This document shows, piece by piece, positions 12,301-58,700 of a stretch of 64,000 bases of DNA. Every line of letters starts with the position of its first letter. Within the stretch, counting starts at the first letter, position 1. A model generated the notes under the pieces. The model saw only the letters and a program-made list of their open reading frames with translations. It was not told the DNA's origin and made no database searches. The DNA lies in the NCBI RefSeq assembly GCF_964355755.1, contig NC_092672.1:34282501-34346500 (forward strand). Reading direction: 5' to 3'. Source of the stretch: Antedon mediterranea. Lineage: Eukaryota; Echinodermata; Crinoidea; Comatulida; Antedonidae. The position numbers and the translations under genes were made by a program.

Positions 12301-15300
12301 GTCTAATATGAAGTTTCTTAAATTATGCAATACGGCAGAATCCCACACAATTACCCAACTAATTAACATAATCTGGCAAAGTTACTCATGCATTTATGCG
12401 ATAACCCATTCTGATTGTGTGGCTGCAATAATAACATTAATGTTGTACTGCCAGCAGTATGTATGTACATGTGTATGACGTACATTTAAACATTCAATTA
12501 TGCCATTTACATTTGGTATCATGATTTTCAATGAAAATGCCTAATTGATATCAGTGTATGATTATGAATGTGTGACAAACATTGATTCTGAACATATGAT
12601 GTAAGTTAACATTAAAAATGTGTATGATTAAACATCCTATGGTCTGTTTCATACTAGTTTGAACATCCTATGGTCAGTTTCATACTAGTTTGAACATCCT
12701 ATGATCAGTTTCATACCAGATTGAACATCCTATGGTCTGTTTCATACTAGTTTGAATATCCTATGGTCAGTTTCATACTAGATTTAACATCCTATGGTCT
12801 GTTTTATACTAGATTGAACATCCTATGGTCAGTTTGATACTAGATTGAACATCCTATGGTCAGTTTCATACTAGATTGAACATCCTATGGTCAGTTTCAT
12901 ACTAGATTGAATATCCTATGGTCAGTTTCATACTAAATTGATCAATCCTATGGTCAGTTTCATACTAGATTGAACATCCTATGGTCAGTTTCATACTAGA
13001 TTGAACATCCTATGGTCAGTTTCATACTAGATTGAACATCCTATGGTTCATACTAGGTTGAACATCCTATGGTCAGTTTCATACTATGTTGAACATCCTA
13101 TGGTCAGTTTCATACTAGATTGAACATCCTATGGTCAGTTTCATACTGGGTTGAACATCCTATGGTCAGTTTCATACTTGTGACCTTTCATATGTTTCAT
13201 GATAATGTTATACATAAAGTCTCATGTTTAGTATTTATCAGTACACCATATTGTTTGTGTGTGGGTATCTAACATTATAAAGTGCATAATCAGAACAGCT
13301 GCAGCACATTACTGGTAATGGACTTTTTATAGCATTTTCAAGTACAGTAGCAATTTATCTACTAAATAATCAACATTTTAATACTACCATAAATACCATT
13401 TTTAGTAGTGGTTAATCATTGATTATGGACAGATACTGATTTGCATACAATACATATTTATCCAATTCTTGGAATGTTCTTTATTTACTTTCTAAGTTAT
13501 AAATAAAACATAAATTCACTCTTACTCACTAACTTTTTTTTAAGCTTGTTCTAGAAACATTTTAAGGTTTTAAGTTTTCAGGCAGTCTGATATTTTGTTT
13601 AATTTCATTTGAATTTTTTTTTTAAATATTGAAGATAATCAAAATGATCTATGTACAGTGTTGTTTAAATATTACTTTCTAATATCCATATGCATTTAAA
13701 TATTAACAGCCTTAGGCTACTCATTGTAAGATCAACATTTGGATTTATAATTCAACTTAAGATAACAAATTACAATTTAACTTAGTCTTTGACATTTTAA
13801 GTTTTACTAATTTACAACCGATTTAAAATCAACTCAATTACAACAATTAGATTTTAGAATAAATTTATAATTAATCTTCATTGTCAACATTGAATTCACT
13901 TTATTTATATTTATGATACAGTACTACTTATGATCTAGGGAAAGAATTATTATTTATAATTTATCAATGCTTTTAACCATGTTTTTAAATATTAATTTCT
14001 TTTACTTTATATTCTTTTAACAGGAGTATCTCCTGCAGTACACACCTCAAAAGATATAGACAATAAAATTACATGTACTATAATATTTATAGGTTTATAC
14101 GAGAGCTTTCAGTGCTTAAAAGTAACTCGTATAGCGGAGATCGGGAACTTCACGAATGGCTGAAGAATGTTGGCGCAGAGTATCCACAATACGTCCACAA
14201 CCTGGTACAAAGTGGTCTGGATATGAGTCTACTACCGTACGTCACAGATGAGATATTGAAGAGCGATGCTGGCATAACGAACGGTGTACACAGGCTGAAG
14301 ATTTTAGTGCATGCACGCAAAATATCCGGAGGAAGAGGTACCATTTAAATTTAGATTCAGCATTATTGTTTTTGTTTTCTTTTTCTCTATTGTGTTGAGA
14401 AAAACTGTTATATCCAACTGTTTGCAGCATAACATAGGGTTGTGTTGAAAAAGAAAGAATTAATACCATTTTAAGCAACATAACAATATATTCTTACTTC
14501 ACAGTGCCTTTTGGACCAGAAGACTACCCTAGAGTTTTTGACAGTCCTCTGAGAAAGACGAAATCGTCCGGTATACCAAAAGACATCCCAGATGCAAAAC
14601 CACAAAAGACCCTTGACGTCTTCATCAGCTACAGACGTGCCACAGGCTCACAGCTAGCAAGGTTCTAAATATGTTTTTTATAATTATAAGTTTATTTAAC
14701 AATTATGCCTTCAAGATTTTGATTGTTAAGTTTGTTGGTTTAAGTATAAGGATAAGTCGTGACCTTTCGTAGACACAATTGGCTGTTTGCAAATACATTT
14801 AAATATGTTATAAACTTGGTGAATACTACTGTCAATTAATGTTGTATTATATTAGTTTTCTAGCACCACATAACTACCTTCTTTAATGGCTACCACTTTA
14901 TTATTAATTTGTTTTATACAGTATTTGGGGGTCACTCCTTTTACAACCAAATCCAAAAAAACAATCGTATTTATTATTGTTATTAGGACACTCAACAAAC
15001 CCGATGAAATATATATTTATCAGATATGCCCCTATTAGGAGACCCTGTTAAGTCCCTAAGGTGTACCCTTAATAGGGGGTCCTACTCTATTAAATATTGT
15101 TAAATTAGCTATTGTACAGTTTAATACAGTACATTGCTTTTTACCTTTCTTACAGTCTCCTTAAGGTCCATTTACAACTCAGAGGTTTCTCAGTTTTCAT
15201 TGACGTAGAAAAGTTAGAGGCAGGCAAATTTGACAACAACCTTCTGAACAGCGTTCGTAGTGCACGCAACTTTGTCATCGTTCTCTCAACCAACTCATTA

Positions 15301-20253: not shown

Positions 20254-23200
20254 ATGAATCAGTTATCTTCGGGTGCATTAAAGGTAAATATCATGTTGAC
20301 AAGGTTTTATTTTAAATTATAGGCGTAATTAAAACAATGATTGAAATAAAAGCTAGCCTAGGCCTAGCCTAGGCCTACTAAATAAAATATTTTGTCATCC
20401 CATGATGAAATGGAACTGTGGGTTCATGCTTGTCTTGACTTGCTCAAACGGGAGGAGGCGAAAGATGTTTTGTTTAAGCCTCCAAGTCTAGGCCTAGAAG
20501 TAGAATATAGAGCTCGTCAACAGCTTGCTACAAATAATGGAAATGAAATCGAAAATAACAAACTTTAAAAAAGAATTGACATTTTCATTGAATTTATCAT
20601 TAATTTTGATATATTTTTAGCGGCATGCCACAATGAGTTTCAATTTATCCACATTTTTTATTCTTCCATCCACTTTACAGGAGATATCTGTGGACAGTAA
20701 ACATGTAGATAAGCCTATCTTCCAGCTTTTGGTAAGTTTTATTTTGTTATCACAGGAAAGATCGGATAGGCTTATATTTATGTGTAATTTAAAACAATTC
20801 AATGTGATAAAATTTAAAAAAATGTAATTTATTTTTTGCTTTAATCTAAAACATCTAAAACATGTGTAATGAAAATAAAAAAAAAAAAAACAGAAAGCTC
20901 AACACGTTTAAAATGGGTTGGGTTGTTCAAGTTGCAGGCTTACATAATTGACTATTTTTGCAGGCTCTTAAGAAGATTGGAGCAAATAGTGGTACCAATG
21001 ACAGATACAGGTTGCTGCTTTCTGATGGCGAACACAGTTATTCAGGTTTATAATTCAACCATTCAATATTTCAATCCAACAATTAAATATTTCAATCCAT
21101 CGATTCAATATTTCAATCTATCAATTCAATATTTCAATCCATCAATTCAATATTTCAATCTATCAATTCAATATTTCAATCCATCAATTCAATATTTCAA
21201 TCCATCAATTCAATATTTCAATCCATCAATTTAATATTTCAATCCATCAATTCAATATTTCAATTCAATATTTTAATCTATCAATTCAATATTTTAATCT
21301 ATCGATTCAATATTTCAATCCATCAATTCAATATTTCAATCCATCAATTCAATATTTCAATCCATCAATTCAATATTTCAATCCATCAATTTAATATTTC
21401 AATCCATCAATTCAATATTTCAATTCATCAATTCAATATTTTAATCTATCAATTCAATATTTAAATCTATCGATTCAATCTTTCAATTTATCAATTCAAT
21501 ATTTCAATCCATCAATTCAATCCATGGTTAAAATCTGATCCAGATCAATCTAGATCACCAATTGTAGGTGCCTTATTCCATGCTTTTTATTTTTATTTGA
21601 CAGCTATGTTGGGAACCCAGCTAAACTCATTAGTGAGTGACAACAAACTTCAATCGAAAACCATCATACAACTTGACAAATACATATGCAATACAATCGG
21701 AGAAACGAATAAGTAAGTTCAATTGTTCAAAATGCTTTTTCTGACTCTGAAGAAATTAGTTCATTAAGAATTTTGTGAGTGGTACAATTTCAGGCATTTA
21801 AGCTGTTTGAACACAGTGTAGTGAGCAATTAAAAATTCCTTCCCTTCACACAATACATTTGTGATCTGGATTTAAATATATCTCTTGTTTATTTGTAGAA
21901 AAGTTATGATAATATTGGAAGTATCCATTTTGAGTCAAGCGAAGGAGAAGATTGGTAACCCTGTACCTCTATCATCTACAAACCAACAGTCTGCTCCATC
22001 AGCACAAGCCCCACCTCCTGGTATGTATTTTTATTACTTTATTTATTACTACCTGTTTATTTTTAGATCACACCCAAATGCTTCTAAAGATCTGTCTACA
22101 CTATCAAACTAGTTTGACAAAAAATATGTGCCCAAAATTATGATAGTGATATACCCAAATATAATAGTGATATGACATCATCATGCCCATATATCGCCAC
22201 ATCACATTTTTTTGTCACTTAAAGTTTGATAGTGTAGACAGAGCTTTAGACCTGGTCAGCAAAGAGTATCTGTTTAAATCATCCATGATATTATTCATTA
22301 AATGCTAATTAACAGGTAATTAATTATTTCAGCTCAAAACCCAGTACCAAACAAGCCAGTCCCAAAATTCCAAGGTAAGTGAAAACCTTATTTGATTTTT
22401 AATTAAAGGTAAATTTTAACCCCAAAAAAGATAATCATGATATAATGAATAGTAAAGTTATATAAATTTATAACAAGGTGATACAAAATTACAGTACTCG
22501 CTGATTGCGCTTGATTCTCACTAGGATACAGCACGACGTAGGCCCAACGCAAGTGACAATTTCAGTTATCCATCCATCTTTACCGATTGCTGCTTAACCT
22601 AATTTTTGGTATACCACTAAATTCTTTTTTTTAAGGTGGTAATTTGAATAAACCAGCTGGCGGTAGTTTTTATGGTAGTAACAACACACCAACAACTCCT
22701 GGCGGCACTCCTGCAGTTGCAAGACCAATAGCCAGTCTCACACCCTACCAAAACAGGTAAATTAATGATACAGTTTAATAGGCCTTGTCTCCTATAGACC
22801 AAAAATAGGCTTAGGAAAATATATATGTTTGTGGAGGCAGTTTTTCGGTATTGTATTGGTTCTTTCAATCCATCAATTCAATCAATGGTTCAATCCTGAT
22901 CCGGTTCAATCTAGATCACCAATTGTAGAGTGCCTTATCCATGCTTGTCTCTTGAAAATAATATAATTATTACTAGCCTAAATCTTCCAATCTTAAGGAA
23001 TTTATTCCTCTTTTTGCTCGCAGATGGACTATCAAAGCACGTGTAACAAACAAGACACCGATCCGTAAGTGGAACAATGCTCGCGGTGAGGGTCAGCTGT
23101 TCTCGATGGACTTGGTCGATCAGTCTGGTGAAATACGAGCCACAGCATTCAAAGAACAGTGTATAAAGTTTCATGATCTCATACAAGTTGATAAGGTAAA

Positions 23201-26200
23201 ATAGATAGCAAATGTTTGCAGGGTTATCCAGCGCTTTGCACTTTTTCCAAGGAGAACAAGCAGCGCCCAAGGTTAGCCTAACAATATGTGATTATTCATT
23301 GTCTTTTTTTTAATTTAATTTTTTTATTCCGATTTTTGTCTGAAAATACAGACTTGTGAAACACGTATAGAAATCGATTTGCAGACCGCAAACATCCGAT
23401 AAGAATGATGTAGGTTATCATACCATATTTGGCTATATGGGGCAGGCGGTATGCAAATATAGATTTCGAATCAACCAATGATCATTTTGTTTCAAAATGA
23501 AAAAGATCGAGCTGAATGTACGATCGTGACTGAATTAACAACTGTTGAAATATAAAATCATGTTGCCAAGTTTTTTTGTTTATTAATTGTCTAGTCCTAG
23601 CCTAGGCCTCCTTTGTAGGCCTACTCGTCCGTATGACCTGCCAAATAAAACGGCAATAAGATTCATACCACCGGCACATAGCTACACCACACAGGACAGG
23701 GTCTGGGTGGGAATTAAATCAAATTATCGCCGCATAATAAATGATCTATTCAATGTGAGAAGCTAGCCTATCACATCAAGACGAGTTTTCATGTTCTTGG
23801 GAAAAATCCCATCAAATGTTTACCAGACTACTAGGCATATAAAATTATTTCTACAGTAGCCTTCACATCATCATCACTTCGCTTCGCGATAATGTACCCA
23901 AACAAGCACACGTGTGTCTCCGCACATCGTCGAAACGTAACATAGCGCATGCGCATCATCTTAGTTGTTGAATCTTTGAAATTCTGAAATATGAATATTA
24001 AAACTGCGTACGAGTGAGTAGCCAATGGCATGCGGCTGAAACTAGTCAACTGGATAATCGTATGCACCAAGAATTCTTGGTATCAAACCATGTGACTGAG
24101 TATCCAAATTTAAGTAGTATACATATGAAATGCCATATGTGCCAAAATATTTATCGTTTTACTAATATTAAAGCAAAACTCCGTCCGGAACCCAGACTAG
24201 TAGTTACATTGGCAAGATTACAATATTAGTTTATATGTATAAAGCAACTTCTTAAACCCTTTTCACACCTGCAAAAAGTAACAATTTGTAACCAGGTTTG
24301 CGCGTGAAGACAATTTGGAGGAAAATCTCACCAATGGAGGCCTGTTTTTTTGGTTCCGAATTGTCTCAAGTTGTTACTGCACACGTGTATTGGACTGGTA
24401 TTAAACTGACCAATCATATAAATAGCGCGCAACTATGCTTTCTCCCAAGATTTCTCACGGTTCGTGTATCGTGTATGCGTGTATGAAAACGTGTAATAAA
24501 TCGGAAGATCAAACAATAACAATTTACACAGATGTGAAAAGGGTATTAGAGCAATTTCAGGTGAAATACGAAAATAAAACCCCTTAAAATAAACTTTGGA
24601 CTTGGTAGAAAAATTTCTGAGTCCACTACATTTGAATGCTTTTGCTTAATGTTGTTGACCGTTTTAAAGTCTACCAGACTGTTTTAAAAAGTGATTCTTC
24701 CCATCCCATAGGTTTATATGATAAGCAAGTGCTCGTTAAAACCGGCCAATAAGCACTTTACATCTATTGACAACGATTATGAAATGTCCTTCACGTACGA
24801 TACAGTTGTGACCCCAGTTGAAGAAGACACTGAAGAAATCCCTGGCATGCTATTCAACTTCAGGAAAATTGGAGAGCTGGAGAATTTTGAAAAAGATACC
24901 ATATTGGGTAGGTTGTTTGTTTGTAATATTTATTGTTATTATACCGGCACCTTTCAATTCACGGCATGTGATTGGTTAATCACCGGTCTACAGTTGTTGC
25001 CATGCCATCAAACTATCCACATACGCAATGCGGCGATTGAATATTGTAACATATAAGTAGCATTCTTGTATAAAACCAGTGCTTTCCCTGAAGAAATTAT
25101 TGATGAAACTGTGACATACGGATACTGCGGCCGCTGCACTGCTTTTTTTTTTCTGTAATAACATTTGATGCAATGTCAAAGTTTGTGAGCAAGCCACTGC
25201 AATAAACAGTGTGTATGATTACCAAAAAAACTTGCAAAGTAATTGTATAAACATGTTACATTGTTAACAACAAGTTACTGCAGTAATTGTGGTAAAAAAT
25301 TTGACATGGTCTTTAGGGGGTGGGGAGATCGTCTCACCCCCATGTGCGGGGGTTACCATGATGCTTGACCTCAATCCTGGGGAGAACCCTGCGGTCTTTA
25401 AACACAAACCAAACTTTGTTTTTTCGTGGCAGATGTTATTGGTGTTGTAAAGAGCACTGGGGAATGCAGCACCATCATGACCCGCAACAGTCAAGAGGTC
25501 GCCAAGAGAGACATCCAATTGGTCGATGATTCTGAACAGATTGTTAACCTGACATTGTGGAGAGATCAAGCGGAGAATTTTGATGGCAGTAACAACCCTG
25601 TGATGGCTATTAAAGGAGCTAAGCTGTCTGATTTTGGTGGCAGATCTCTGACTATCTCTTCAGCATCAGTTATGCAAATCAATCCAGATATACCAAGAGC
25701 TCACCAGTTAAAGGGATGGTTAGTGGCTGTTTTTTTTAAAAAGTATTTGCCCATGGCTGTCATTTTCCGCTGAGTGTCTTTTGATATTGCCAATGAGCCT
25801 TTAAACCTAGAAATGTAAAAAAAAAAGTGGGGGCGGAAGGGAGGGTGTGTAACAACCAATCAAAAAAGCTTAAATGTTTTGTAAAGTCTATTAACTAAGT
25901 CTTGTTTATATTTTCAGGTATGATAATGTAGGCTGTTCAAAGGAAATGCAGTCCATTTCCAAGGGGGGTGGGGGTGGAGGAGGTGGATCCGCCAACTGGT
26001 TTAACCTTCATGAAGTTAACTCACAAAACCTTGGAAAAAGCGAAAAGGTAAATCTCTGTCTACACTATCAAACTTTATGTGACAACAAAATGTGATGTGC
26101 TCATATATGAACAGGATGATGTCATATCACTACCATATTTTGACATATCGGTACCATATTTTGGCACATCACACTTTTTTTTGTCAAACTAGTTTGATAG

Positions 26201-29200
26201 TGTAGACAAACTTTAGACACATTACTTGCTAATATCACCTAGTATCATCATAAAATTATATCTTTATTATGTTTTCAGGATTTTTTATGACTGGCTAATA
26301 TCACCTAGTGTCGTCAAATTACATCTAGTTTTCAGGGTTTTGTATTCACTATGTAATATATAATGTTGTTTTTTTTTTTCTCTTAGGCTGATTATTATAC
26401 TATGAAGGGTACAATCATGTTTTTAAAGAAAGAGAATTGTTTGTATAAAGTAAGTGTTCTCAAACAAAATATACGTACAGACATAAAACAACAGAGTACT
26501 ACTAAAAATAGTAGCTTCCCCTATTAAACAATTTTGCTTTGATAAAACTGGGAACTGAGAGCATATCCTTAATTATTTTTTGACAATTATTACACAAATT
26601 GCCTGTGCTACTAATAAAAATTAGACAAAATGTATTTGGGCATCTTTAGTGGGTCAACATACATATTTTGTGTAGGAAATAAAACAAACAACATAAAGCA
26701 AAGTTATAATCGATTGTTTGGCGTTTAATATTGGCAATTTCTTTTATTGTAGGCCTGTCCAGAAGCAGAATGCAACAAGAAGCTTGTGGATAATGGCGAC
26801 AACACATACCGCTGTGAGAAATGTTCAAAGACGTGCTCAAACTACAAGTACAGGTTGATCTTATCGGTAAGACAGAGTTGAACAGTTTATTTCTCTATCT
26901 ATCTACTTATTTTAAGCAATGATGAAGGGCTAGTGTTGCCCAAAAGCTCTGCTAACTTTTCTGGCGGTTTTACTTTATCGTTTTGATTTAGCTTTTCGAT
27001 TTTTTTTTTTTTGTATCTCCATTAAGATCCAGCCACTGATAGCCACAGCATTGTCATTTTGTATCTCCATTAAGATCCAGCCACTGATAGCCACAGCATT
27101 GTCATTTTGTATCTCCATTGAGATCCAGCCACTGATACCCACAGCATTGTCATTTTGTATGTCCATTTAGATACAGCCACTGATACCCACAGCATTGTCA
27201 TTTTGTATCTCCATTGAGATCCAGCCACTGATAGCCACAGCATTGTCATTTTGTATCTCCATTGAGATCCAGCCACTGATACCCACAGCATTGTCATTTT
27301 GTATCTCCATTGAGATCCAGCCACTGATACCCACAGCATTGTCATTTTGTATCTCCATTGAGATCCAGCCACTGATAGCCACAGCATTGTCATTTTGTAT
27401 CTCCATTGAGATCCAGCCACTGATACCCACAGCATTGTCATTTTGTATCTCCATTGAGATCCAGCCTCTGATACCCACAGCATTGTCATTTTGTATCTCC
27501 ATTGAGATCCAGCCACTGATAGCCACAGCATTGTCATTTTGTATCTCCATTGAGATCCAGCCACTGATACCCACAGCATTGTCATTTTGTATCTCCATTA
27601 AGATCCAGCCACTGATACCCACAGCATTGTCATTTTGTATCTCCATTGAGATCCAGCCACTGATACCCACAGCATTGTCATTTTGTATCTCCATTGAGAT
27701 CCAGCCACTGATACCCACAGCATTGTCATTTTGTATCTCCATTGAGATCCAGCCACTGATACCCACAGCATTGTCATTTTGTATCTCCATTAAGATCCAG
27801 CCACTGATACCCACAGCATTGTCATTTTGTATCTCCATTGAGATCCAGCCACTGATACCCACAGCATTGTCATTTTGTATCTCCATTGAGATCCAGCCAC
27901 TGATACCCACAGCATTGTCATTTTGTATCTCCATTGAGATCCAGCCACTGATACCCACAGCATTGTCATTTTGTATCTCCATTGAGATCCAGCCACTGAT
28001 AGCCACAGCATTGTCATTTTGTATCTCCATTAAGATCCAGCCACTGATACCCACAGCATTGTCATTTTTTCAGTATTTTGCCTTTGGATCTACATTATAC
28101 ATTTATCTACTTATTTATTATATTATACATTTATTGTAATTGTAACGTAAAAAGATACTCCAAACAGGCCAGCGACAATGCTGAAATAATGTGTATAAAA
28201 TGTCATTTATGTACTGATCTACATTAACCTTTGACCCACATTACACTTTGACCTTTATGCAGGCACATATTGCTGATTGTCATTCGTCACTGTGGGCTAC
28301 TTGTTTCCAAGATACAGCAGAGGGTTTACTTGGTCAGAAGGCAGAATACATTGGTAAACTCAAGGAGGATGTAAGTATATAATACTGTGTAATTTTTACT
28401 TTATTGTTAAAGCCGATTTCGAATTAGTACTTGGAATCGAAAGCGTCAGTTTATACGCATGCGTAGAGAGGGATTTGGAAGATGGAAACATGAATACACA
28501 TGCGTATAAGCTGCCACTTTCGGTTCACACAAATTTGCCTAGTGGAAAATTAAATTGGCTTAACAAAACTGGATGTAATTACAAAAGACAATTGGGCAAG
28601 TTTCCTATTGGCAAACGAATAAACCTCATAATTAAAGCCAATATCAAGGGTTGTATTGTTATTTTGTTAGGATGATGAGGCGTTCAATGCACTGTTTGAG
28701 GTTGCAAGATGCAAGTCGTACATATTTAAAATGAGAGCCAAAATGGAAACCTTTAACGTAAGCAAGTTGATGTTGTTATTCTGACCATGAATGATAATAG
28801 CATTAAAGCTCTGTCTACATTATCAAACTTTATGTGACAACAAAAATGTGATGTGCCCAAATATGGTAGTGATATGATGTCATCTTTTCACATAAAGTTT
28901 GATAGTGTAGCCAGAACTTAGATTAGTTTAGTCTTAAGTGCAATATTTATCAGGGTTCATACAAGGCATAGAAATTCATGGTATTCTGCTAAAATATTTT
29001 CCAGGCTTCCATTAAAAAGTCTTTTTGATTGAAATATTTTACTCTGTCTGAAAGGTCATGAAAATGAACTCTTGAGGATTGTATGAACACTGTTGAAACA
29101 ATCAGCTTATCAAATCTGTTTCTCTTTATTTTGAGTGGCATTACTGTAGCTCCCATTACCAGTTGAACAATATTCCTGCTGATGTGTATTCCTGCTGACT

Positions 29201-34020: not shown

Positions 34021-37000
34021 ATGGACAATCAGATAAGGAATGACTTTGTAATTAAGGTAAGTTACTCAACCTTGATAGGCCCGGTTCCGGTATACAGCCT
34101 ACAGCACAGGTAGGAGGAAGGAAGCCGTTGTATCAGGGTATAGCCTAGGCTGTGTAAAGTTAACAACTAAGTCAGAGGCCTAAAATAAAAAAATATAATA
34201 ACAAAAATAATATAGCCTACCGTTTTTATATTATAATTTTTTTTTTATAAAATACCAACCATCAAAGCTTTTATTGTGTTTTCTGTATATTTTTAAGCCT
34301 GTAATTTTTATTTAGGGAATAAGTAATTAATGTATAGTAGGGCTATTTTAATTAAAAAACAAATTTAAAAATCTTATAATTTATATATTGATATTAAATA
34401 ATATAGACTTCATCTATTCTTGATGAATACAAAGTTTGCTGGACGCAGAAACTTGGGACCGGTATCAACGGTCCTGTTCGTTCATGCATCAAGAAATCGT
34501 CCGAAGAACGTTTTGCGTTGAAAATAATTCTCGATAACCCTAGCTCACGAGAAGAGGTGCGGCATCACAGACGTGCAACTGGAAACAAGTATATCGTGAC
34601 GTTGTACGAAGTTTACGCTAACGATGTCCAGTTTCCCACGGAGAATGAACCTAAAAGCCGATTGTTGCTGGTTTTGGAGTTAATGGATGGTGGTGAATTG
34701 TTTGATAGGATTAGACAGCAGAGAGGTTTCACAGAGAGTAGGGCTGTGGATTATGCAACACAGGTAATACAATTTCCCCCTCCCCCAATAAAAGACCATT
34801 TCTGAGACCAGAACAAATGGGTTGTTTACAAAAAAAAGTTTTTGAAGATGGTCCGAACTCCAAAATTGTTTTAATCTCAAGCCTGTAAGAGATTATAATT
34901 ATTAATTATATAATACTTTTTTTTTAAGGTGGCCAAAGCTGTATATCGATGTCATAGTCTAAATATAGCACATCGTGATTTAAAACCTGAGAACCTGCTT
35001 TTAAAAGACAACTCGGAGGCAAGTATTATAGTCCTTTCTGAAGACCGGGGTACACTGAACATTTACATACGAAGTGACACACGGCAAGCTTCAAAACAAA
35101 ATGATTCACACAAAGCTTCAAAAAGTTCAACTCTCGAATTCATCACATTGAAGTTGAAATTGTTTGTCCTGCCAAAATGACGGTTCGATTTGACACTTTG
35201 ATGCTCTTCTAAAGTAGTATTGTGTTTGATCTTCCTCATTTTCGTTTTCATTTCATAATAATAGATATTTATCAGTTATTATTTTTTCCAATTTCCAGAA
35301 TTCTGTAGTGAAGTTATCAGATTTTGGATTTGCAAAATATGATGATGGAAATTTGATGACACCAAACTACACACCTTACTATGTTGCACCACAGGTAAAG
35401 TATTTATCAATATAGCTAAGTTTTATATATCTGAAATAGAAATGTAGGCCCAATCACAATAACATTTTTGAAAAATGAAAAAAGTCTTCTTAATCTTTAG
35501 CAAAAATGCATTTTCTTGTTGATTTCATTTTTAAAACACAATTTGTGCTTTACTTTAAATAGGTTTTAGAAGCTCAACAGAGGCAAAGAACTCGCGATAA
35601 GGACATCATATCTGTCGCTACATACACCTACGATAAGGTACTTTATCCAGGCTGTCACAATGCCTTGGTTCTATCTATATATGGATCTATAAATCTAGTT
35701 TATAAAATCCCTTAGTATCATGTTTTTTATCTATATAACATGGTTAGAACATCATGCATCAAACCTTGTATATAAGTACAAAATTATTCCTGTTTTTTTC
35801 TCCAACATGTTAAATTTAAAAAAAAACTATTTTTTCCCCCTAGAGTTGTGATATGTGGTCTTTAGGAGTTATATTATACATCATGCTATGTGGTTACCCT
35901 CCGTTTTACTCCGAGACGCCCTCACAGAAGCTCTCTCATCAAATGAGATGTCGGATCATGGCCGGAGAGTATCAGTTCCCGAAGGAGGAATGGTCCATTA
36001 TCTCCGCAGAGGCTAAGGATGCTGTTAAAAGGTATAAATAAGAGAGGTAGTATAAATTCAAAGGCAAATTACTGATATATGGGTATCAGTGGCTGGATCT
36101 CAATGGAGATGCAAAAAAAATAATGACAATGCTGTGGGTATCAGTGGCTGGATCTCAATGGAGATGCAAAAAAAATAATGACAATGCTGTGGGTATCAGT
36201 GGCTGGATCTCAATGGAGATGCAAAAAAAATAATGACAATGCTGTGGGTATCAGTGGCTGGATCTCAATGGAGATGCAAAAAAAATAATGACAATGCTGT
36301 GGGTATCAGTGGCTGGATCTCAATGGAGATGCAAAAAAAATAATGACAATGCTGTGGGTATCAGTGGCTGGATCTCAATGGAGAGGCAAAAAAAATAAGC
36401 AAAAAGCTAAATCAAAACCCTTTTTTCTCTTTTAGCCTTCTAATGGTGGAACCAACTGAACGCATGACAATTGATCAGTTTTTACAGCATCCATGGTTGA
36501 ATAATCCAAGAAACTCTGATGCCCAACTACATTCTCCCGCAATTATGTTAGACAAGGTAGTGTAAGGTGTTCCAGTTCTCTCTATAGAACCATATCTTGT
36601 TTATCGTAATTTGTACGTTTCTTAAGCTCTGTCTACACTATTGAAATAGTTTGACAAAAAAAATATGATATGCCAATATATGGACATGATGATGTCAAAT
36701 CACAACCATAAATGGACATATCACCACCATATTTGACATATCACACTTTTTACTAGTTTGATAGTGTAGACAGAGCTTAACTGACATTTACGTTTTTGTT
36801 AAATAGAATATGATGGAAGAAGCCAAGCAGGCTCATTCGGAGCAGCTAACTAACATGAGACTACCAGAGAAACGAGTTGTCTTAAAATCTGTACTGAAAT
36901 CTAATAACCCAATTGTAAGGAAAAGATTTAGGAGCAGGTATGTTGCATACTATAATAATTAATATGGCATTGGATATATTATATTTTAATCAAATCTCCC

Positions 37001-40735: not shown

Positions 40736-43700
40736 ATGAATATGTCTGAGCCAGCAATAGGTGCAGAAAACACGAGCGAAGCTCCTAGCGATCAAGGAAA
40801 CCGCAATAAGATGGATGTTGACACACCAGTCAGTGAAGGGGATGGTGCAACAGATGGGGTAAAGGAGGCTGGTATGGAAGAGGGGACGAGCAAAAATGTT
40901 CAACAGGATGATGCGTATAATTACACACAAGAAGGCCAACTGTTTACTTCAGAGATTTATAAAATTGAGATTCAAAATCTTCCTAAACATTTTGGATTTA
41001 AAGTAAATTAGAATTAAAAATTATTTTTTTTTAAATCTCTGTCTACACTATCAAACTAGTTTATGTGACAAAGGAATGTGATGTGCCCATTATATGGACA
41101 TGCTATGGTCATATCACTACCATATTTAAGCATATTACCACCATATTTGGGCACATCACACTTTTTTGTCAAACTAGTTTGATAGTGTAGACAAAGCTTA
41201 TAGGGCACAAACAAGTCTTGACCCCATGCCGCCCACTGGCTACAGTAGTCCGATACCCCTTACTCTCATATAGGGTAGACAGAGATTTTAAAATAAATTA
41301 AACAGAGCTTAGGCCCTAGTCAAACAGTTTTCAAAATACTGATATATAATTTTTTATACAATGCCTACTTTAAGCTATTTTATTCAATCATGGAGAAATA
41401 AGTATTTCTCCATGATTCAATTGATATTTAAAGGGAAAAAATGTATTTATGATGAAAGATTTTGTTGTTGTTTTTTCATATATAGCAACTGAAAAAGATG
41501 ATTACCAACCTAAATCTAAAACCAAAGAAAGTGAAAGCAGTGAACCGTGCAACATATGCATTTGTGACATTTACGTATGTCTATTTTATTTGACATTAAA
41601 GGCCAACTTGGACAACATCGTACGACGAGGCCCGACAAAATGTCTTGACTGGTGCTGTCTGAGATGAATCCAGACGAGTCGTCTCAAGATATGGTCGGCG
41701 GCAGTTTTTAGGTCGTCCTGAGAACTCTAAGCATGTTTATTTTTCCCCCGACGAGATGCTTTCACCAGGCCTTGTCGTACGACACTGTCTGAGTTGGTTT
41801 TAAGATTAGTTTTAGGATTTCCATCTTCTCACAATGAACAAATGATCTGTGTGTGGACAGACCTTTATGATCAGTTTGAAAGACAGCAATATTTATTTCA
41901 GCTTAAGAACGAAGGTGAAATATGATTTTTACCTTGATCTTGAGACTTATAAAGCTGTAGCTTGTGTGTTCCTCTCTGATAAAATGATTACAAATTTGTT
42001 AATGATCATATATCAAATTATATATTTATAGATGTGAAGAGGATCGAGAAGAAGCTTTAAAAGTTTTAAATGGTCATAAATGGAAGAATCAAGTATTACG
42101 TGCCAAGGTAGAAATAATTCCAAAATATTGATGTTGTACTTTCACATTGAAACAAAAACAATCTGGCTAAAATTGTTATTAATATCTATTGTTTTACGTC
42201 TCAATACACCTGTCTGTCTTGTGACTTTATTGTGTACTGGTTTCCAGAGCTTTTAATTCCAAAATAGAGGTAAATCTCTGTCTACACTATCAAACTAGTT
42301 TGATAAAATAAGTGTGATGTGCCCAAATATGGTAGTGATATGACATCATCTTTAAAAAAAAACATTGTTATTACATAATGATGTATCTTATAAAATTGAA
42401 TTGAAATCATTGTGTCTATATAGGCACATGACATAAAGTCTGATAGTGTAGACAGAGCTACAGGCATTTTTAATGGTTGTCACTTTCAGTTTTATAAGAT
42501 ACACTAATTGTGTTTAATATTTCTAAAGCTTGCTGTTTTTGTGTCTCAACCTCTCTTGTTTACTTGTTTCCGGAGTAGAGGTTAGACTTTATAAAGATGA
42601 ACTAATTTTGTCTAATGTTTTAAAAGCTTGCTAAGCCTAAAGCTGATCCATTGATAGCAAAGAGAAAACAAGACAGTGATAATGATGGTAACCAAGCAGC
42701 TAAGAGGAGCAAACAAGATATACTTACACCAGAAGAAAGGTAGGGCTACTACTAATTTTGATAATATTTTTAATGTTTGTTCATCTCTTATGCCATTGGT
42801 ACATACAGTTTGGTCACTCTTGTGGTAGCACAGTGATTGAGAACTATCTGAATAGGTAGCCTATCTCCTTGGCCTGACAGTGATTAATGACATGAGTTTC
42901 AATAGATGATTCTTTTAAGTGCACACAACCTGGATTCTTAAGCTCTGTCTACACTATCAAACTTTATGTGACAAAAAAAATGTGATGTGGCCATATATTG
43001 ACATGGTGATGTCATATCACTACCATATTTGGGCATATCACTACTATATTTGGGCATCCATATTTGGGTTCATCACATTTTTTTGGCAAACTAGTTTCAT
43101 ATTGTAGACAGAGCTTAAAACTGGGTTTTTATAGCTTCCACAACTTCCCCAATTATTGTTAATCATATTCAAATCTTTAGATTGTGCAATGCTGTGATTC
43201 CATATTGGAATAAGTCATATGAAGAGCAGCTGAAACTAAAGGAGGAGAGCATGGAACAGTTTATGATCACCCTTGGTAAAACCTTTGAAAGACAGACACC
43301 AGAGCTGAAGCCATGGCTAATTACACAAAGGTTTGTCAATAGAGTCATACTGCACTCAATATTATCATTACACAGTTCAGTGCAGCTGGAACTAAACCTG
43401 TATCAAACGTTATATGACAAAAAAATATGATGTGCCCATGTATGGACATGATGATGTCATATCACTAACATATTTGGGCATATCTATCACTACCATATTT
43501 GAGCACATCACACTTTTTTGTCAAACTAGTTTGATAGTGTAGACAGAGCTTTAGTCAATGCATACATGTTGCAATGCAGTTTTTTTAATCTAAGGCCAAA
43601 TAAAAAAACATACTTGTTAAGCGTCACCGCCCGCTCCTGATTATCCAGCCGCCTCTCTTTTTATTTATTTTTTTTTTTTACCGATATACAACGGAAAGTT

Positions 43701-46700
43701 CAGCGGCCCGGCCCAGCTCCAGAGTAGGGCTCGAAATTCACGCTAGCAAACTAGGATTTTGCTAGTAGATTCTTCATAATTGCTATTTGAAAATTTCAAA
43801 ACTAGCAAATGTTTGTTAGGCTAGTGTAATTTTTGAAAAATACGTACTTTTTAGCTTAGACAACGCTAGCCGCCGATCGCTCTATGTCGACAACGGCAAT
43901 TTGGTGAAAACAATTGTTTCATTTACACGCCGCCGATTTACGTCAAGGAAACGCGAATAGCACCGTGAATCATGTAATGTGGTAAACAGCAAGCTTTTTC
44001 CCCAACACATTAAATCATGTGCATTTAGTGCGTCGCTGAGGATTACATCATCAGTCACGTGATTACAGAATACGCGATTATCAATTTAAGGATTTAACGA
44101 AATAAATATTTTGCCTACACAGTGGTCGAAGCGCGTTTTTTTATAGGTTCGTAAATAGGAAACACCCCATACATAATGGACTCTACCAATTTTGTTTACG
44201 ATGATCCGAAATACTTTAGTTAAAACTACTAAAATAATCCCTCCATAAGTCATGAATTGGCTGTGTGATTTACACACGTCTATTCAGGCGATAGGCACAT
44301 GTATACACCCTTTTTGGCAATTAAGGCGTGCCATACGTTATTAACAATATTGACAATTCTGGCGGCCGAATGTACATATTTTGTCTTTTTTGCCGTTTCA
44401 TGATTTTGGCCGTTCCATAACCGGCGGCCGAAATGACTGGCGGCCGAAATGATCAGACACCGTTTACCTGTGGAATAATTACATACACTTTTTGCATCAC
44501 AACTTTAAATACTGATTTACACAGCAATTGGCAAAGGATTCATCAAAGAAGAATGAATACGTTGAATAAAAATTCACTTAAGAAATGCCGTAAGCTGTTT
44601 TCAAACTATAAATCAGCCCACTATTTAGTATTATTGAGACCAAATCATGCTTCTCGCGATAGGGAATTTCCTGGATAGATGAGTCGAGCGAGAGACGGCG
44701 GATGGCCGATGAGTGAGGTGGGGGTAGCAGCTTGGACGGATTAGTTAGCCTAGGGCCTACAATTTCGCTTGGTGGCAATTAAATTTAATGTTTTAATTAC
44801 GTCTGGATATAAACAATACAAAACTCAATTTTGTCATAAGCAATAATATTTCATACATAGTCAATTTTGTTCTGTTTCGCATTTTAAAAGTTTGACGTTT
44901 CATCCTAAAAAAAGTGGGGCAAAACGTCCACCGCGCAAAAATATACCTCTATAAAAAGTAAACAAAAAACAAAAAAAACCGTCCCCCCCGCCCCTGAAAA
45001 TTTATGAGGGTGTGACGCTTAACAAGTATATTTTTTTATTTGGCCTAATCATGTCTTTTTTTTCTTACTCTTAGACTAAAGAATGATAACTTGTGTTGCG
45101 AGCTCCAATCAGTAATACCATCGGTAAGTAGTTATAAAAATTGTCTTTTTACTGGCTAATTACAGAATACAAGAGAATATGACCAGGTACAGTAGGCAAG
45201 CACCTCAGATAATATTAATTCAGTTCTAAGGTGAAAATGATCCCTCTTTTATCTAAGTCCATAAAAAATACAATACAGTAATCAAGTGTAACGATTTGAT
45301 TAATATAAATTGTGTTAATCTGTTGATATCATTTTTGTTACAGCCTGCCATTAATGAATATCGTAATAAATGTGAATTCAGTATTGGAAGAAGCTCCGAA
45401 AACCATGACAACACAGTTGGCTTCAGGTTCGGGAGGTACAAAGGTCAGGCATTGTTTTTGTTTCTATTCAATACATGTATTATACTTTTCTTCTGTAACA
45501 TGAATCAGTGGAGTGGCCGACAGCCATCTCTGTAACATGAATCAGTGGAGTGGCCGTCAGCCATCTCTGTAACATGAATCAGTGGAATGGCTGTCAGCCA
45601 TCTCTGTAACATGAATCAGTGGAGTGGCCGTCCGCCATCTCTGTAACATGAATCAGTGGAGTGGCCGACAGCCATCTCTGTAACATGAATCAGTGGAGTG
45701 GCTGTCAGCCATCTCTGTAACATGAATTAATCAAGTGGAGTAGACAGTGGTATGGCAGTTGCGCTGTAGCCCATAGCCATAAAATTGGCAAAGCTTCAAG
45801 CCTCTCCTCAACCATATTTCCGGTGTCTTCTTGGATATGACTGGTGTACACATCTGACTTGTGTTATCATATAAAGCTCATTATAAATACAGTACTTAGC
45901 TATCAAAACAAGTTGAGCGATTATGACGGAGGTGTCGTTTACTCTACCTAAAGAGCCAACAATATCGGCATGGGTTCGATGCCTCATTCCCTCCTAGTTC
46001 TGGTGGTGCATGGAAAAAGTCTTCTTGAATAAGGTTAATCAACCATAGGTCCAGTGTACACCCAGTGTTATAACCTGTGTGCACTTTCAAAAACCCAGTT
46101 CATCATTTGAGATGAGAAGGGGTTACCCTGGTGAACTGGTTCACAAAATAGCCCCTGTATACCACCTATCTAATATAGGATAGGATAATTTACTATTGGT
46201 AATCCTTGTCCAAATATGCCTAAAGACATAAATATAAATGATGATTTCAAATTACAGGTGGAACAGTCGATGTACTTGAGCCCACATGTTGTTGTAATGT
46301 CCCTAGCAATATGAAGAAAGTAGCTGCAGCCTTCCAGAAACACATCAGATCAACTGGTTTACCGAGCCATCAACCACAGACTCACAAGGGCTACTGGCAT
46401 ATGCTAGTAGTCAGGATGACTTTAGACAACCAGATTATGGCAATAGCGCATTTACATCAGCAGAAACTGTCAGAGGTGAGGTTAGGCCTAGGTTGGTATA
46501 GTATTCTCATAGTTTCTTAGGTTTGGCCTAGCTTGCTATGGCGTAGTCACATTGTGTAAAGCTCCGTCTACACTATCAACTAGTTTGACAAAAAAGTGTG
46601 ATGTGCCCAAATTATGACATCATCGTTTCTATATATGGGCACATCACATTTTGTCACATAAAGTTTGATAGCGTTTGACAGATCTTTAGGTTAGGCCTAG

Positions 46701-49700
46701 CTTGCTATGGTATTATAATAGTGTGTTGGATTGATCCACACACAATAACCAGCCTAAAGACCTTATTGCAATTCACTCCTAAGAGTACACTATTCGAAAA
46801 GAGTAGGGGATCGTCTCCCGGTGTGCTGATCTGGTAGGCGCTGCACTGCTGGCTGCCGTTAAGCTTGAGGACAAATATGAATACCTTTACCTTTATATAC
46901 AAAATGTATTGGTTCCAGCTAGAAATGTATCATGTATGTATTCAAATATTTATTTCCTTACATTTGTTTTTGAAGGAAGAGATTTCAAAGCAGAAAAAGA
47001 GTTTAAGGGATTACTTTGTGGAAGGAGAAGGCAAGTCATGCTTGTTGACGTCACTTTATATCCAGTTGCAGAAAGACAGAGAAAGGTTTGTGAATTTGTT
47101 CTGGCCCTTGTAATCCAGTCTTTAATAGTCCGTTCATTAGTTCAATTTGAAATATCCAAAATTGAGATGTATTATCTTTCTTATTTACTAATTTATTTTG
47201 TTCATGTTTTTTCTATATAAAGGCAACCTCTTGAGCATTTATGGGGTGAGAAGTGTATTCATGAAAGTATGATGGGTTTGAAGTTCAGAATATCACCAGA
47301 AGCTTTCTTTCAAGGTAAGCTTTATTTTTTGTTATATTTATTTTATGCATCCTTAAAGAGGGCACCCTTTCCAGTTTTGGCCGGTGGATTAACTGATATT
47401 CAGGAACCCTCAACAAGTAATAATCATAAATATTAAATTAAGAATATCAGAATCGATATATAATAACTATAACTATAATATCAAATAATCAGTGTAAAAA
47501 TATATCAAAAGCTATCTGGCCATGTTATTATCTAGATAATCTACAGTATGTACATTATCTAGATAATCTACATTATGTACATTATCTAGATAATCTACAG
47601 TATGTACATTATCTAGATAATCTACAGTATGTACATTATCTAGATAATCTACAGTATGTACATTATCTAGATAATCTACAGTATGTACATTATCTAGATA
47701 ATCTACAGTATGTACATTATCTAGATAATCTACAGTATGTACATTTTCTAGATAATCTACAGTATGTACCATCTTAGTTCAATTGTTTAGTTCAATTTTG
47801 TTTGTATTTTAGTAAACACAAAGGCAGCTGAAATTTTATATAAAACGATTGCTGATTGGTGCGGTGCTACTAAAAAATCGACAGTATTAGATGTATGTTG
47901 TGGTACTGGGACCATAGGGATATCCATAGCTAAGGTAGGTGGAAAGAAATGAATACAGTTTGAGTTGAACTACTGTTAAACAGAGTCTACACTATCAAAC
48001 TAGTTATCTAGTGTAATGTGACATTTCTAGAAATTCTTTAAGTGTAGACAGAGCTTAAAAAATAGATTCTATTGATGACATTTTAAGTTCGTACACAGTT
48101 TATTTACATGATGTATCTCAAACATGTATTTATCATTTAAAACAATGTATTGTATTGTTTTATTTTAGAATGTTCATCGAGTTATTGGTGTGGAGATGAA
48201 TGAACAAGCTACCCATGATGCAAAGGAAAATGCTAAATTGAATGGTGGGTAAATTCAGTGTTTACTAGTATGACTCTTAGCAACAATATTCTAAAGAATT
48301 TTCATCTTTAAAAACAAGCACGAATGTGCGATACTCGGGGTACAGCAAACGAAGCTGTAATGACGTCATAAGACCGGATGTGACGTCACATACACATCAA
48401 TAACCCCGCTACCAAATACGGCTATACGGTACCATCTTCGAGACGTCATATGGCTGCATCCGATTTGAAATTTAAAAATACGGTTCTATAGCTTTGAGGA
48501 CATGTCCCTGTAGTATATTGATGCCAAATCCCAGCTCAATACTACAACTAATAAGGAGGAGTAGTACTTTATAAATCGCACTTTTTACTCGATAGTGTCC
48601 AGATGGAAGAAGAAGAAGAAGAAGAGGAGAAGATGAGAGAGTACTAGACTCGGGTATCCCGAGTAAAAATTAACCTAGTTGTATTTTTGTATATATCATT
48701 ACAGCTTTTGTGAATTATTTGTTATTTTTCTTTGTTTATTTTGTCCAGGTATTGATAACATTGAGTTTCATTGTGGTAAAGCTGAAGATGTGATGCCTAG
48801 CCTCACTAGTACCTTAGAGAATTGTAAAGATATCATTGCAATAGTTGATCCTCCCAGAGCTGGTTTACGTAAGTTGCTTCATTGTCAAACAGTCTCTCCA
48901 GATGTCCAAATTGAATCTTCATCTCTCCATCTCTTTGTAAACAAGTTATCGTTAATAATTGTCAAACATCTTTGAAAATGAGCTACTAATAGTATCAACA
49001 TTTATCCCCAAACCTTCAGGGAATACATTGAGTTTGTTGGTAAATGTTTTTATTCCATTTGCTTGAAGTGTCTGTTGAATTTGAATATAGGGTCCCTGCC
49101 TAGATTGTTGAATTTGAACATAGGGTCTCTGCCTAGATTGTTGAATTTGAACATAGGGTCCCTGCCTCAATTGTTGAATTTGAACATAGGGTCCCTGCCT
49201 CAATTGTTGAATTTGAACATAGGGTCCCTGCCTAGATTGTTGAATTTGAACATAGGGTCCCTGCCTCAATTGTTGAATTTGAACATAGGGTCCCTGCCTC
49301 AATTGTTGAATTTGAACATAGGGTCCCTGCCTCAATTGTTGAATTTGAACATAGGGTCCCTGCCTAGATTGTTGAATTTGAACATTGGGTCCCTGCCTCA
49401 ATTGTTGAATTTGTACATAGGGTCCCTGCCTCAATTGTTGAATTTGAACATAGGGTCCCTGCCTCAATTGTTGAATTTGAATATAGGGTCCCTGCCTCAA
49501 TTGTTGAATTTGTACATAGGGTCCCTGCCTAGATTGTTGAATTTGAATATAGGGTCCCTGCCTCAATTGTTGAATTTGTACATAGGGTCCCTGCCTCAAT
49601 TGTTGAATTTGAACATAGGGTCCCTGCCTCAATTGTTGAATTTGAATATAGGGTCCCTGCCTAGATTGTTGAATTTGAACATTGGGTCCCTGCCTCAATT

Positions 49701-55577: not shown

Positions 55578-55691
55578 TGCCCAAATATGGTAGTGATATT
55601 CCCAAATATGGTAGTGATATGACACCATTGTCCATATATGGACACATCACATTTTTTGTCACATAAAGTTTGATAGTGTAGATAGAGTTTT
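55578..55691. mobile_element. Palindromic MITE, family B (copy q, left end missing)
   Basis: The core 'ccaaatatggtagtgatatg' and the right arm 'aagtttgatagtgtagatag' remain. Confidence 0.75.
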
Positions 55692-55783: not shown

Positions 55784-58700
55784 ATGTCTGATAAAAGCAG
55801 TTCTTCTGGAAGTGACCTATTTACAGGTTGGCTATATAAATGGACAAACTATCTAAAAGGATATCAAAGAAGATGGTTTAGCCTCTCAGATGGAAGACTA
55901 TCATACTACAGGTATACTAACTGTTTACTTAACCAGTTTTAAAATCACCTATAAGCAATCACTAATTAACTACATTTCCTAATTTATCCTTTTTTAATTA
56001 ATCTTGTATTAGTTAGTTTTAATATTTATGACATAATTATTTGATAACATTCAATTTTATTATATTTTTGTTTCTTTTTAATTTTTTTTTGGTCAATATT
56101 TATTAGTAAGTTATCAGTTTAGCGCCTTGAGCACTTTTAGTGGATAGGTGTACTATATAAATTATTATATTATAGTATATTATAGTTTCCGTGTCATGTG
56201 GACAACTGCTTAAAGTAATTTTTACTTATTTTGATCTCCTTTCACACATTGTCTTCTTTTCCCCCCTTTTTTTAAAGATATAAATATCTGTTCTTTTTGT
56301 TTAATGTGTGGAAAATAAATAAATGAAACAAACAAACAAACTTAATATTCATAATGGGCCAAGTAAATGGTAATAATCCCACCAGAGTGAGAGAATTCAT
56401 TCTTAAGCTCTGTCTACACTGTCGACTTTATTATGTTGTGACAAAATAATGTGATGTGCCCATGTATGGACATGATGATGTCACTACCATATTTTTGCAT
56501 AAGAGTTAAGACAAGAACAGTCCTCATAAATCATTCATTATTTCAAAGAAGACATTTCTAGTTAATGCTAAAAATGATTGATTATAATATACTGTAATAA
56601 ATCTACATTTTACTAGTTCAGTATTTCTAATGGCCGCAGGAAATAATAGATTATCAATTATATAAATTTTTATTCAATTATTTTTTAAAGTATTTGAAAC
56701 GGATCAATTTTTAATAAAAAATTAAAAGCACTCAATCACTTATTGTCATTTAAAAAAATAATCAGCAACAACAATTCCGATTCCAATTATTTAACTAATT
56801 GTTAATGTTAGAGTTTATACTGAATTGTTTTCATTTCAAGGCGCAGATTATTATTATTAACGATTATTGACACAAAATATAATCGATAAAACATTTACCG
56901 TAAAAGCCGATTGCCAAACAGGTTTTTTTTGGTTAAATTTAACTGTTTTTTTGTCTTTTATAACCATTATTTTTACCGTATCCCATTTTTTATGCGGAAG
57001 TGAATTAACTTAATATCAAAACTATGCAGAATGGCCTATTGAAAGTGTTGATACATCTTTATTTTTTTTTGTTTTGCGTCGAAGTAAATCTTCAAGGAAG
57101 TCTAGTTTCTTTGTTTTTGATTAAAAAAGCATTCTATAAATATCTTTATGGTGAAATGAAGATGATGTGAATGGAATATATTTCCATGTAATATTGATTA
57201 TTGATATGAACATGTGCTGTACTAAAATAAATTATGTTAAAATTAAAACCTTGAATAATACAAGGTACTGTATCAAATAAACAGTATTGTTAAGAGTGAA
57301 CTGTTAATGAGAAAAATATTATGATTAATATTAAATTATTACTATTTTTATTAATATTATGGTTCTTGTTTTAGAACGAGTCTTCTCTGATAAGGACTAT
57401 AAACCGTAGGTCCAGTGTACACATCTAGTTCATGTGCATTTTAAAGAACCTAGTACATCTTTCGTGATGAGTAGGAAGTTACCCGGTGTACTAGTTCACA
57501 CACAGCCACTGTCACAAACTCATAATAGTGCTATACACTGGGCCTCCTGAGAGAACAGTCTTTGACTGAAGAGGCTACCCAGTATACAGTAAAGAATAAG
57601 TGCTAAAAAAATAATAATAATTATAATACAGTAGATACAGTATATTAAACATTGTTCGTTTCTTCAATACTAATAATTGAATAATATTTCTACAGTTATC
57701 AGTTATCAATAGGCAGCACTTGCCAGCTTTATACTATGACGTTATCCAAATTCCTTCACTTGCACTGATGAAGGGCTAGTGTTGCTCGAAAGCTCTGCTA
57801 ACTTTTCTGGCTGTTTTACTTCTCGTTTTGATTTAGCTTTTCACTTTTATTTTGTATCTCCATTGAGATCCAGCCACTGATGATACCCACAGCATTGTCA
57901 TTTTTTCAGTAATTTGCCTTTGGATTTATATATAATAACACACAAAGAACAACAGAACAAACATTCCCAAAGATGGCTAGTTAGAAGTAGGACTCATTTT
58001 ATAATACCATTCTATTATCTACACATTCAATATTTTTTAATGAAAATGTTGGCTGGTAAAATGTATCAATTCCATTAAAAAAAGGTTGGTTATCAATATC
58101 ACATTATAATACAGAGAATGTTAGTACATTATCAAAAGCAAGAATATTATATTATTTTATTGATAGTAGTTAAATTCATATTTAATGTTTATGGCTTTTT
58201 ATGGCAATTTACGTACTGTATAGTAAAAAAAATAATTTATTGTAATGTTTTTTTTTAAAGGCTTATGTTTGATATTCCTTTGGTTGGTCAATAAAAACCG
58301 CATTATAATAAGTTCTATTGTCAATTATTTTTATATTACAGAACGCAAGCAGAAGTTGCTCATACATGTCGTGGTACCATTAATCTAGCAGGTGCTTATA
58401 TCGACACGGAAGATTCATGTAATTTTGTAATCTCTAGCGGAACACAGACATTTCATTTGAAAGCCGGCTCAGAGGTAGAGAGGCAGAAATGGGTGACTGC
58501 GTTAGAACTAGCAAAAGCCAAGGCCATTCGTATGACTGAAGAATTCTCAGGTAGCTTTTTATATCTTTTATTGAAATTTTTTTTAATATAACATAATCAT
58601 CATGTTATTCTGTTATTTATTAATTTAATTCTTTGTTGTTTAGGTATGGCCCCTTCTCATCGCCTAGCAAAACCTTAGGAGGTTTGGGGTGGGGGGACAG

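What the first reader, a model, noticed from the sequence alone, without database searches (positions are those of the whole stretch)
26921..28100. One repeat element, three loci, three expansion states of an internal minisatellite
The 48-mer array in an RPA1 intron (about 22 units), a 55-bp derivative in MAPKAPK5 intron 6 (five to six units, inverted) and a single unit in OSBP intron 1 (57765-57930) share the same unit, and the flanks match between loci where present. The array therefore travels inside a mobile element and expands after insertion. The 55-bp form differs by an A-run inside the unit, so expansion happened independently at that locus.
Basis: partly seen in the sequence, partly recalled or inferred. 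Interest (0 to 1): 0.6.

Follow-up and report, generated by a model that had tools for sequence, protein, structure and literature searches.

The report
Minisatellite seeded by Penelope retroelement tails
A short piece of an ordinary retroelement is scattered roughly 1,800 times through this genome, and at dozens of places the same internal 48-to-68-base stretch has been copied head to tail into arrays, mostly after landing, showing how one mobile element keeps seeding new minisatellites.

Summary
The window has a 22-unit 48-bp array in an RPA1 intron, a 5.8-unit 55-bp array (inverted) in a MAPKAPK intron and one unit in an OSBP intron, all in the same repeat. That repeat is the terminal repeat (pLTR) of a Penelope-like retroelement (PLE): longer copies continue into RT and GIY-YIG coding sequence, 5' ends vary, and clear 12-16 bp target duplications exist (13 bp at RPA1). 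The 3' end occurs about 1,840 times; almost all sampled copies carry ONE unit. So the unit travels, usually not the array.
Expansion is mostly local. The 55-bp junction exists only at this kinase locus (plus one variant 91 kb away). RPA1's GATAGCC unit variant occurs nowhere else in the genome. Other arrays have their own variants; one has a 5-unit higher-order pattern. A seed is visible: ATTTT occurs twice, 48 bp apart, in common single-unit copies.
One correction: a duplicated 68-bp form with a fixed junction occurs at 28 or more loci, so duplicated forms also spread. Those loci crowd chromosome ends (22/28 within 15%; single copies 22/90). TE-borne minisatellites are a known kind; a PLE carrier is a new variant as far as I could search.

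The parts
26900..26912 (.). 5' copy of target-site duplication TATCTACTTATTT of the RPA1-intron insertion
   Evidence: 13-bp exact match with 28104-28116
26913..27008 (+). 5' part (head) of the pLTR copy: TGATGAAGGGC...GCCC hammerhead-like core, then GTTTTGATTTAGCTTTT and a T-run
   Evidence: 95-98% identical relatives genome-wide; sequence read
27009..28068 (+). 48-bp minisatellite, 22 units, with locus-private variants GATAGCC (6/22) and TTAAGATC (5/22)
   Evidence: TRF; unit parse; GATAGCC variant found only here in the genome
28069..28103 (+). 3' tail of the pLTR copy (TTCAGTATTTTGCCTTTGGAT...) plus about 14 nt before the target duplication
   Evidence: tail pattern
28104..28116 (.). 3' copy of target-site duplication TATCTACTTATTT
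36050..36419 (-). 5'-truncated pLTR copy (starts GTTTTGATTTAGC) in a MAPKAP-kinase intron, inverted relative to the gene
   Evidence: flanking exons match MAPKAP kinases
36080..36398 (-). 55-bp array, 5.8 units, junction GTCATTATTTTTTTTGCATC private to this locus
   Evidence: TRF; 5 of 6 genome hits of the junction are here
57711..57934 (+). longer pLTR copy with a single unit (unit about 57853-57900), in an OSBP-like gene's intron

Best explanation
The repeat is a non-autonomous, mostly short copy of the 3' pseudo-LTR of a Penelope-like retroelement. Element-encoded RT and GIY-YIG endonuclease insert it into AT-rich sites, with 5' ends that vary or begin near an initiator-like TCACT/hammerhead-like start. 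The common copy has one 48-bp unit bounded by two ATTTT tracts 48 bp apart. After insertion, a slip or microhomology repair event between the two tracts (or nearby sites, giving 55- or 68-bp periods) makes a dimer. Unequal exchange or replication slippage between units then lengthens and homogenises the array at that locus. Shown: element identity, single-unit ground state, local privacy of variants and junctions, higher-order pattern at one locus. Inferred: the slippage or repair step itself, and whether the common 48-bp junction arose once or many times. Less often a duplicated copy is itself spread to new loci (the 68-bp form).
For: Element: RT domain RVT_1 E 9.7e-5 in L004 next to an inverted pLTR, GIY-YIG E 2.5e-4 upstream of a direct pLTR in L007; 102 RT matches in the genome, several >94% identical with open frames of 500-600 aa; target duplications of 13-16 bp. 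Ground state: nearly all sampled copies have one unit. Local expansion: 55-bp junction private; GATAGCC private, 6/6 genome hits in the RPA1 array; CCAATGATA 9/17 units at C1:3786k, CCATTGATA 26/38 at C1:504k, a 2-bp insertion (GATACACCC) giving period 50 at C1:12202k; CCAATGATA, GATAGCC, TTAAGATC and GATACACCC are absent from 63 single-copy units; higher-order period of 5 units at C1:3786k, P=0.0023. Seed: ATTTT at both ends of the 48-bp interval in common heads such as CGCTTTTATTTTG.
Against: The 48-bp junction is GTCATTTTGTATC with four Ts at nearly every locus, even where the local head has a long T-run without the A (RPA1, C1:2192k, C1:3786k); independent slips on T-runs should give variable T counts, so part of the 48-bp class may be inherited. 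The RPA1 array itself shows no significant higher-order period. Pfam scores for RT and GIY-YIG are significant by E-value but just below the curated cut-offs.
Confidence: 0.8

Rival explanations
1. Multi-unit source elements: a few active copies already carry dimers or arrays, which are reverse transcribed as such; local change only adjusts the number.
For: 68-bp junction TTTTTTCAG/TGCTTATTTTATTTTG, with about 1 bp of microhomology, recurs at >=28 loci with exact sequence; three fetched copies have unrelated flanks and different 5' ends; constant T4 in the 48-bp junction.
Against: Private junction and variants at RPA1, MAPKAPK, C1:3786k, C1:12202k; great majority of copies single-unit; expanded copies are positioned differently from single copies, which plain insertion does not predict.
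Confidence: 0.4
2. Duplicated forms spread by ectopic gene conversion or exchange between already inserted copies, chiefly near chromosome ends.
For: 68-bp loci 22/28 within 15% of a chromosome end versus 22/90 for single A-type copies (P=5e-6) and P=0.004 versus B-type heads; L101 combines an A-like head (CGCTTTTTTGTTTG) with a B-type junction.
Against: Only one mosaic copy seen; the head may simply have mutated. B-type heads are themselves enriched near ends (40/87). The positional lists are truncated listings.
Confidence: 0.25
3. Units are added during reverse transcription by template slippage of the telomerase-related PLE enzyme, so the array is made at insertion.
For: The unit lies close to the 3' end where synthesis is expected to start; T-runs flank it; PLE RT starts internally in the one biochemically studied case (PMC11167929).
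Against: Variants shared by subsets of units and a 5-unit higher-order pattern need later rounds of copying; end-of-chromosome bias; in the comparable LAVA VNTR new integrants showed no change in cell assays (PMC4432496).
Confidence: 0.1
4. Arrays are assembly artefacts or plain chance repeats.
For: Long tandem arrays are error-prone in assemblies (general knowledge).
Against: Locus-private variants and ordered patterns; zero hits for reversed control patterns.
Confidence: 0.02

Closest known systems
Penelope-like elements (Penelope/Poseidon type, e.g. Adineta vaga Pen families, PMC3846280; Anolis Poseidon, PMC11167929)
   Same: RT plus GIY-YIG, pseudo-LTRs in direct and inverted orientation, 5' truncation, short target duplications, AT-rich targets, tandem or partial-tandem copies; a hammerhead-like motif in the pLTR region
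   Different: In the passages read, those descriptions do not report an internal minisatellite in the pLTR; here a 48-68 bp unit between head and tail expands
Helentron/HINE elements with central tandem repeats in oyster (PMC7492417) and DINE-1 (PMC4067079)
   Same: dispersed non-autonomous element carrying short satellite-like arrays with conserved flanks
   Different: rolling-circle DNA elements with subterminal inverted repeats and a 3' palindrome; here a retroelement with target duplications, and the usual copy has one unit
SVA/LAVA VNTR retrotransposons of apes (PMC4432496)
   Same: VNTR inside a non-autonomous retroelement; remodelling at DNA level through microhomology
   Different: there the VNTR is a constant part of the source element; here the array is optional
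Minisatellites born from Alu, MaLR or other dispersed elements (review PMC9659126)
   Same: a dispersed element supplies the unit and a local event expands it
   Different: many parallel expansions of one unit with different periods are visible side by side here
Metazoan retrozymes (PMC7229834)
   Same: hammerhead-like motif and tandem organisation in non-autonomous elements
   Different: in retrozymes the tandem monomer contains the ribozyme; here the repeated unit lies downstream of it

Membership tests
Penelope-like element (pLTR-derived copy) | RT domain in the longer copies | tested here: met
   RVT_1 E 9.7e-5 (bits 22.6, below cut-off 29.6) in L004:2290-2900; motifs FDIVEFYPSIS and YRDDG read. 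That the RT is telomerase-like was not tested by a tree
Penelope-like element (pLTR-derived copy) | GIY-YIG endonuclease | tested here: met
   GIY-YIG E 2.5e-4 (bits 21.7, cut-off 22.6) in L007:1874-2158 minus, upstream of the pLTR. RT and GIY-YIG were seen in different copies, not joined in one
Penelope-like element (pLTR-derived copy) | pseudo-LTRs in direct and/or inverted orientation | tested here: met
   inverted pLTR before the ORF in L004, direct pLTR after GIY-YIG in L007 and L013
Penelope-like element (pLTR-derived copy) | 5' truncation and target-site duplication at AT-rich sites | tested here: met
   variable 5' ends; matches of 10 bp or more in 38% of copies versus 17% for shuffled flank pairs; clear cases of 13-16 bp
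Penelope-like element (pLTR-derived copy) | minimal hammerhead ribozyme | tested here: inconclusive
   CUGAUGA-GGGC/GCCC-GAAA core with a GCA/UGC stem is the MFE fold, but z = -0.36 and no Rfam hammerhead match
Helentron/HINE | no target-site duplication | tested here: not met
   target duplications present; element adjoins PLE coding sequence instead
Helentron/HINE | subterminal inverted repeats and 3' palindrome | not tested
   no dedicated search for these was made
Retrozyme (metazoan, non-LTR) | tandem monomer contains the hammerhead | tested here: not met
   the repeated unit starts downstream of the hammerhead-like core
SVA/LAVA-type VNTR retrotransposon | VNTR present in the source element | tested here: inconclusive
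   most copies have one unit, but a 68-bp duplicated form is widespread

The most novel reading that the evidence does not exclude
Duplicated units move between inserted copies on different chromosomes by ectopic conversion concentrated near chromosome ends, so that a minisatellite family spreads laterally through pre-existing element copies rather than with new insertions.
Probability: 0.2. Interest if true: 0.6.

Novelty: new variant of a known kind. Interest (0 to 1): 0.38.

Why it matters
One genome offers a graded series from single-unit insertions through dimers to arrays of about 40 units, with the ancestral state known and several apparently independent births of the same minisatellite at different periods. 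That makes the first step of minisatellite birth (seed microhomology, position along the chromosome, local homogenisation) directly measurable, and adds Penelope-like elements to the carriers of tandem repeats.

Tried and rejected
Helitron/HINE carrier (my first guess): rejected because of target duplications and the adjoining PLE coding sequence. A confident hammerhead call: rejected, since Rfam found none and the fold is not better than shuffles. Higher-order periodicity at RPA1: looked suggestive by eye, not significant. A first unit-extraction script merged units and its distance table was discarded; only its count of variants among 63 single copies is used. In one search the de-duplication of single copies was too strict (19 left), so those single-copy counts are not used. 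A first position test on only six chromosomes was replaced by one on all eleven, which is weaker for the 48-bp arrays.

Full report
What is there. TRF finds a 48-bp array at 27009-28068 (22.1 copies) and a 55-bp array at 36080-36398 (5.8 copies). Reading the second on the minus strand gives the same unit, and a single unit lies near 57.85 kb. The exons on either side of the first array match RPA70 (E 8e-25), those around the second match MAP kinase-activated kinases, and those around the third read as an OSBP-like PH domain.

The carrier. The window lies in a 354-Mb, 18-contig genome without a name. The head of the array has 935 candidate relatives, and the unit plus tail has 1,843 places with at most three mismatches; the reversed control has none. 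Compared by eye, copies read head (TGATGAAGGGCTAGTGTTGCCCGAAAGCTCTGC...TTTAGCTTTTCGC), T-rich spacer, one unit, tail (TTTTTTCAGTAATTTGCCTTTGGATTTATATA), and then AT-rich host DNA. Longer copies extend upstream: L007 into a GIY-YIG domain, and L004 has the repeat inverted in front of an ORF with RT motifs. This is the arrangement of a Penelope-like element with direct and inverted pseudo-LTRs as described for rotifers (PMC3846280). RT relatives number 102 matches, several with more than 94% identity and long open frames. Ends show target duplications: TATCTACTTATTT at RPA1, and 14-16 bp at several others; the excess over shuffled flank pairs is 38% versus 17% at 10 bp or more. Among copies chosen by their 3' end, most 5' ends fall within a dozen bases of TTCACTTGCACTGATG. 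That site holds an initiator-like TCACT, the kind of motif named in the rotifer pLTR, so these may be complete short transcripts; this is inference.

Single unit is the ground state. In the loci fetched by head or tail, all but a handful carry one unit, and the apparent multi-unit cases read are mostly separate insertions, for example into the TA tail of an older copy in L032.

Local expansion. Five arrays were parsed. Four have variants shared by several of their own units: GATAGCC (6/22) and TTAAGATC (5/22) at RPA1, CCAATGATA (9/17) at C1:3786k, CCATTGATA (26/38) at C1:504k, GCATCTC (5/6) at the kinase locus. A whole-genome search shows that the GATAGCC unit with its junction occurs only in the RPA1 array (6 of 6 hits), and that the 55-bp junction occurs only at the kinase locus apart from one two-mismatch relative 91 kb away. 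A further locus has period 50; the stretch read there shows a 2-bp insertion in successive units. At C1:3786k the units follow a 5-unit order (lag 5, P = 0.0023; lag 10, P = 0.0017), which requires block duplication after the units had diverged. These P values are not corrected for the number of lags and loci tried.

Seed. Heads of the common type CGCTTTTATTTTGTATC contain ATTTT, and the tail contains GTCATTTTTTCAG; the two ATTTT tracts are 48 bp apart, so misalignment gives exactly the junction GTCATTTTGTATC that recurs. This resembles the microhomology-driven DNA-level remodelling reported for SVA/LAVA (PMC4432496). The constancy of four Ts even beside T-run heads leaves open that part of the 48-bp class descends from one dimer.

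Spread of a duplicated form. A 68-bp junction has 351 hits; the exact hits listed fall in at least 28 loci, one of them an array of nearly 5 kb on C8 as far as the list goes. Three fetched examples have unrelated flanks and different 5' ends, and one (L101) has a head that does not match its junction. So duplicated forms are also dispersed, by transposition or by conversion between copies.

Position. With contig lengths, 22 of 28 68-bp loci lie within 15% of a chromosome end, against 22 of 90 single A-type copies; Mann-Whitney P = 5e-6, and P = 0.004 against the B-type heads from which the 68-bp junction derives. The 48-bp arrays differ from A-type copies (P = 0.007) but not from B-type heads (P = 0.44). 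The lists are truncated, some loci lie close together, and this test was devised after seeing the data, so it is a lead and not a result.

Verdict. TE-born minisatellites are well known (PMC9659126, PMC7492417). I found no description of one in a Penelope-like pLTR in the open library, which is not proof of novelty.

Noticed in passing
window 49073-51390: A 33-bp minisatellite of about 70 copies (93% matches), unrelated to the 48-bp unit.
   Followed up: no
window 12626-13178, 21061-21521, 45492-45727, 47527-47769: Four further minisatellites (31, 21/42, 37 and 27 bp units); this 64-kb stretch is rich in minisatellites, at about 12% from the end of its chromosome.
   Followed up: no
window 43013-43057, 55580-55620, 26123-26172, 36699-36745: A dispersed 20-21-bp motif (CATATCACTACCATATTTGGG and variants), about two copies each, recurring in both orientations.
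   Followed up: no
G000 C8:3659460-3664418: Array of the 68-bp form over nearly 5 kb or more with frequent 136-bp spacing, approaching satellite size.
   Followed up: partly
L011, L015, L017 upstream of the pLTR: Three copies share the same upstream flank (ACGTTTGCAGCCTCAACGCATCTATAT), suggesting a composite repeat or duplication.
   Followed up: no
G000, e.g. C3:30814166-30814771: A second RT subfamily about 58% identical to the L004 RT with open frames up to 760 aa.
   Followed up: no
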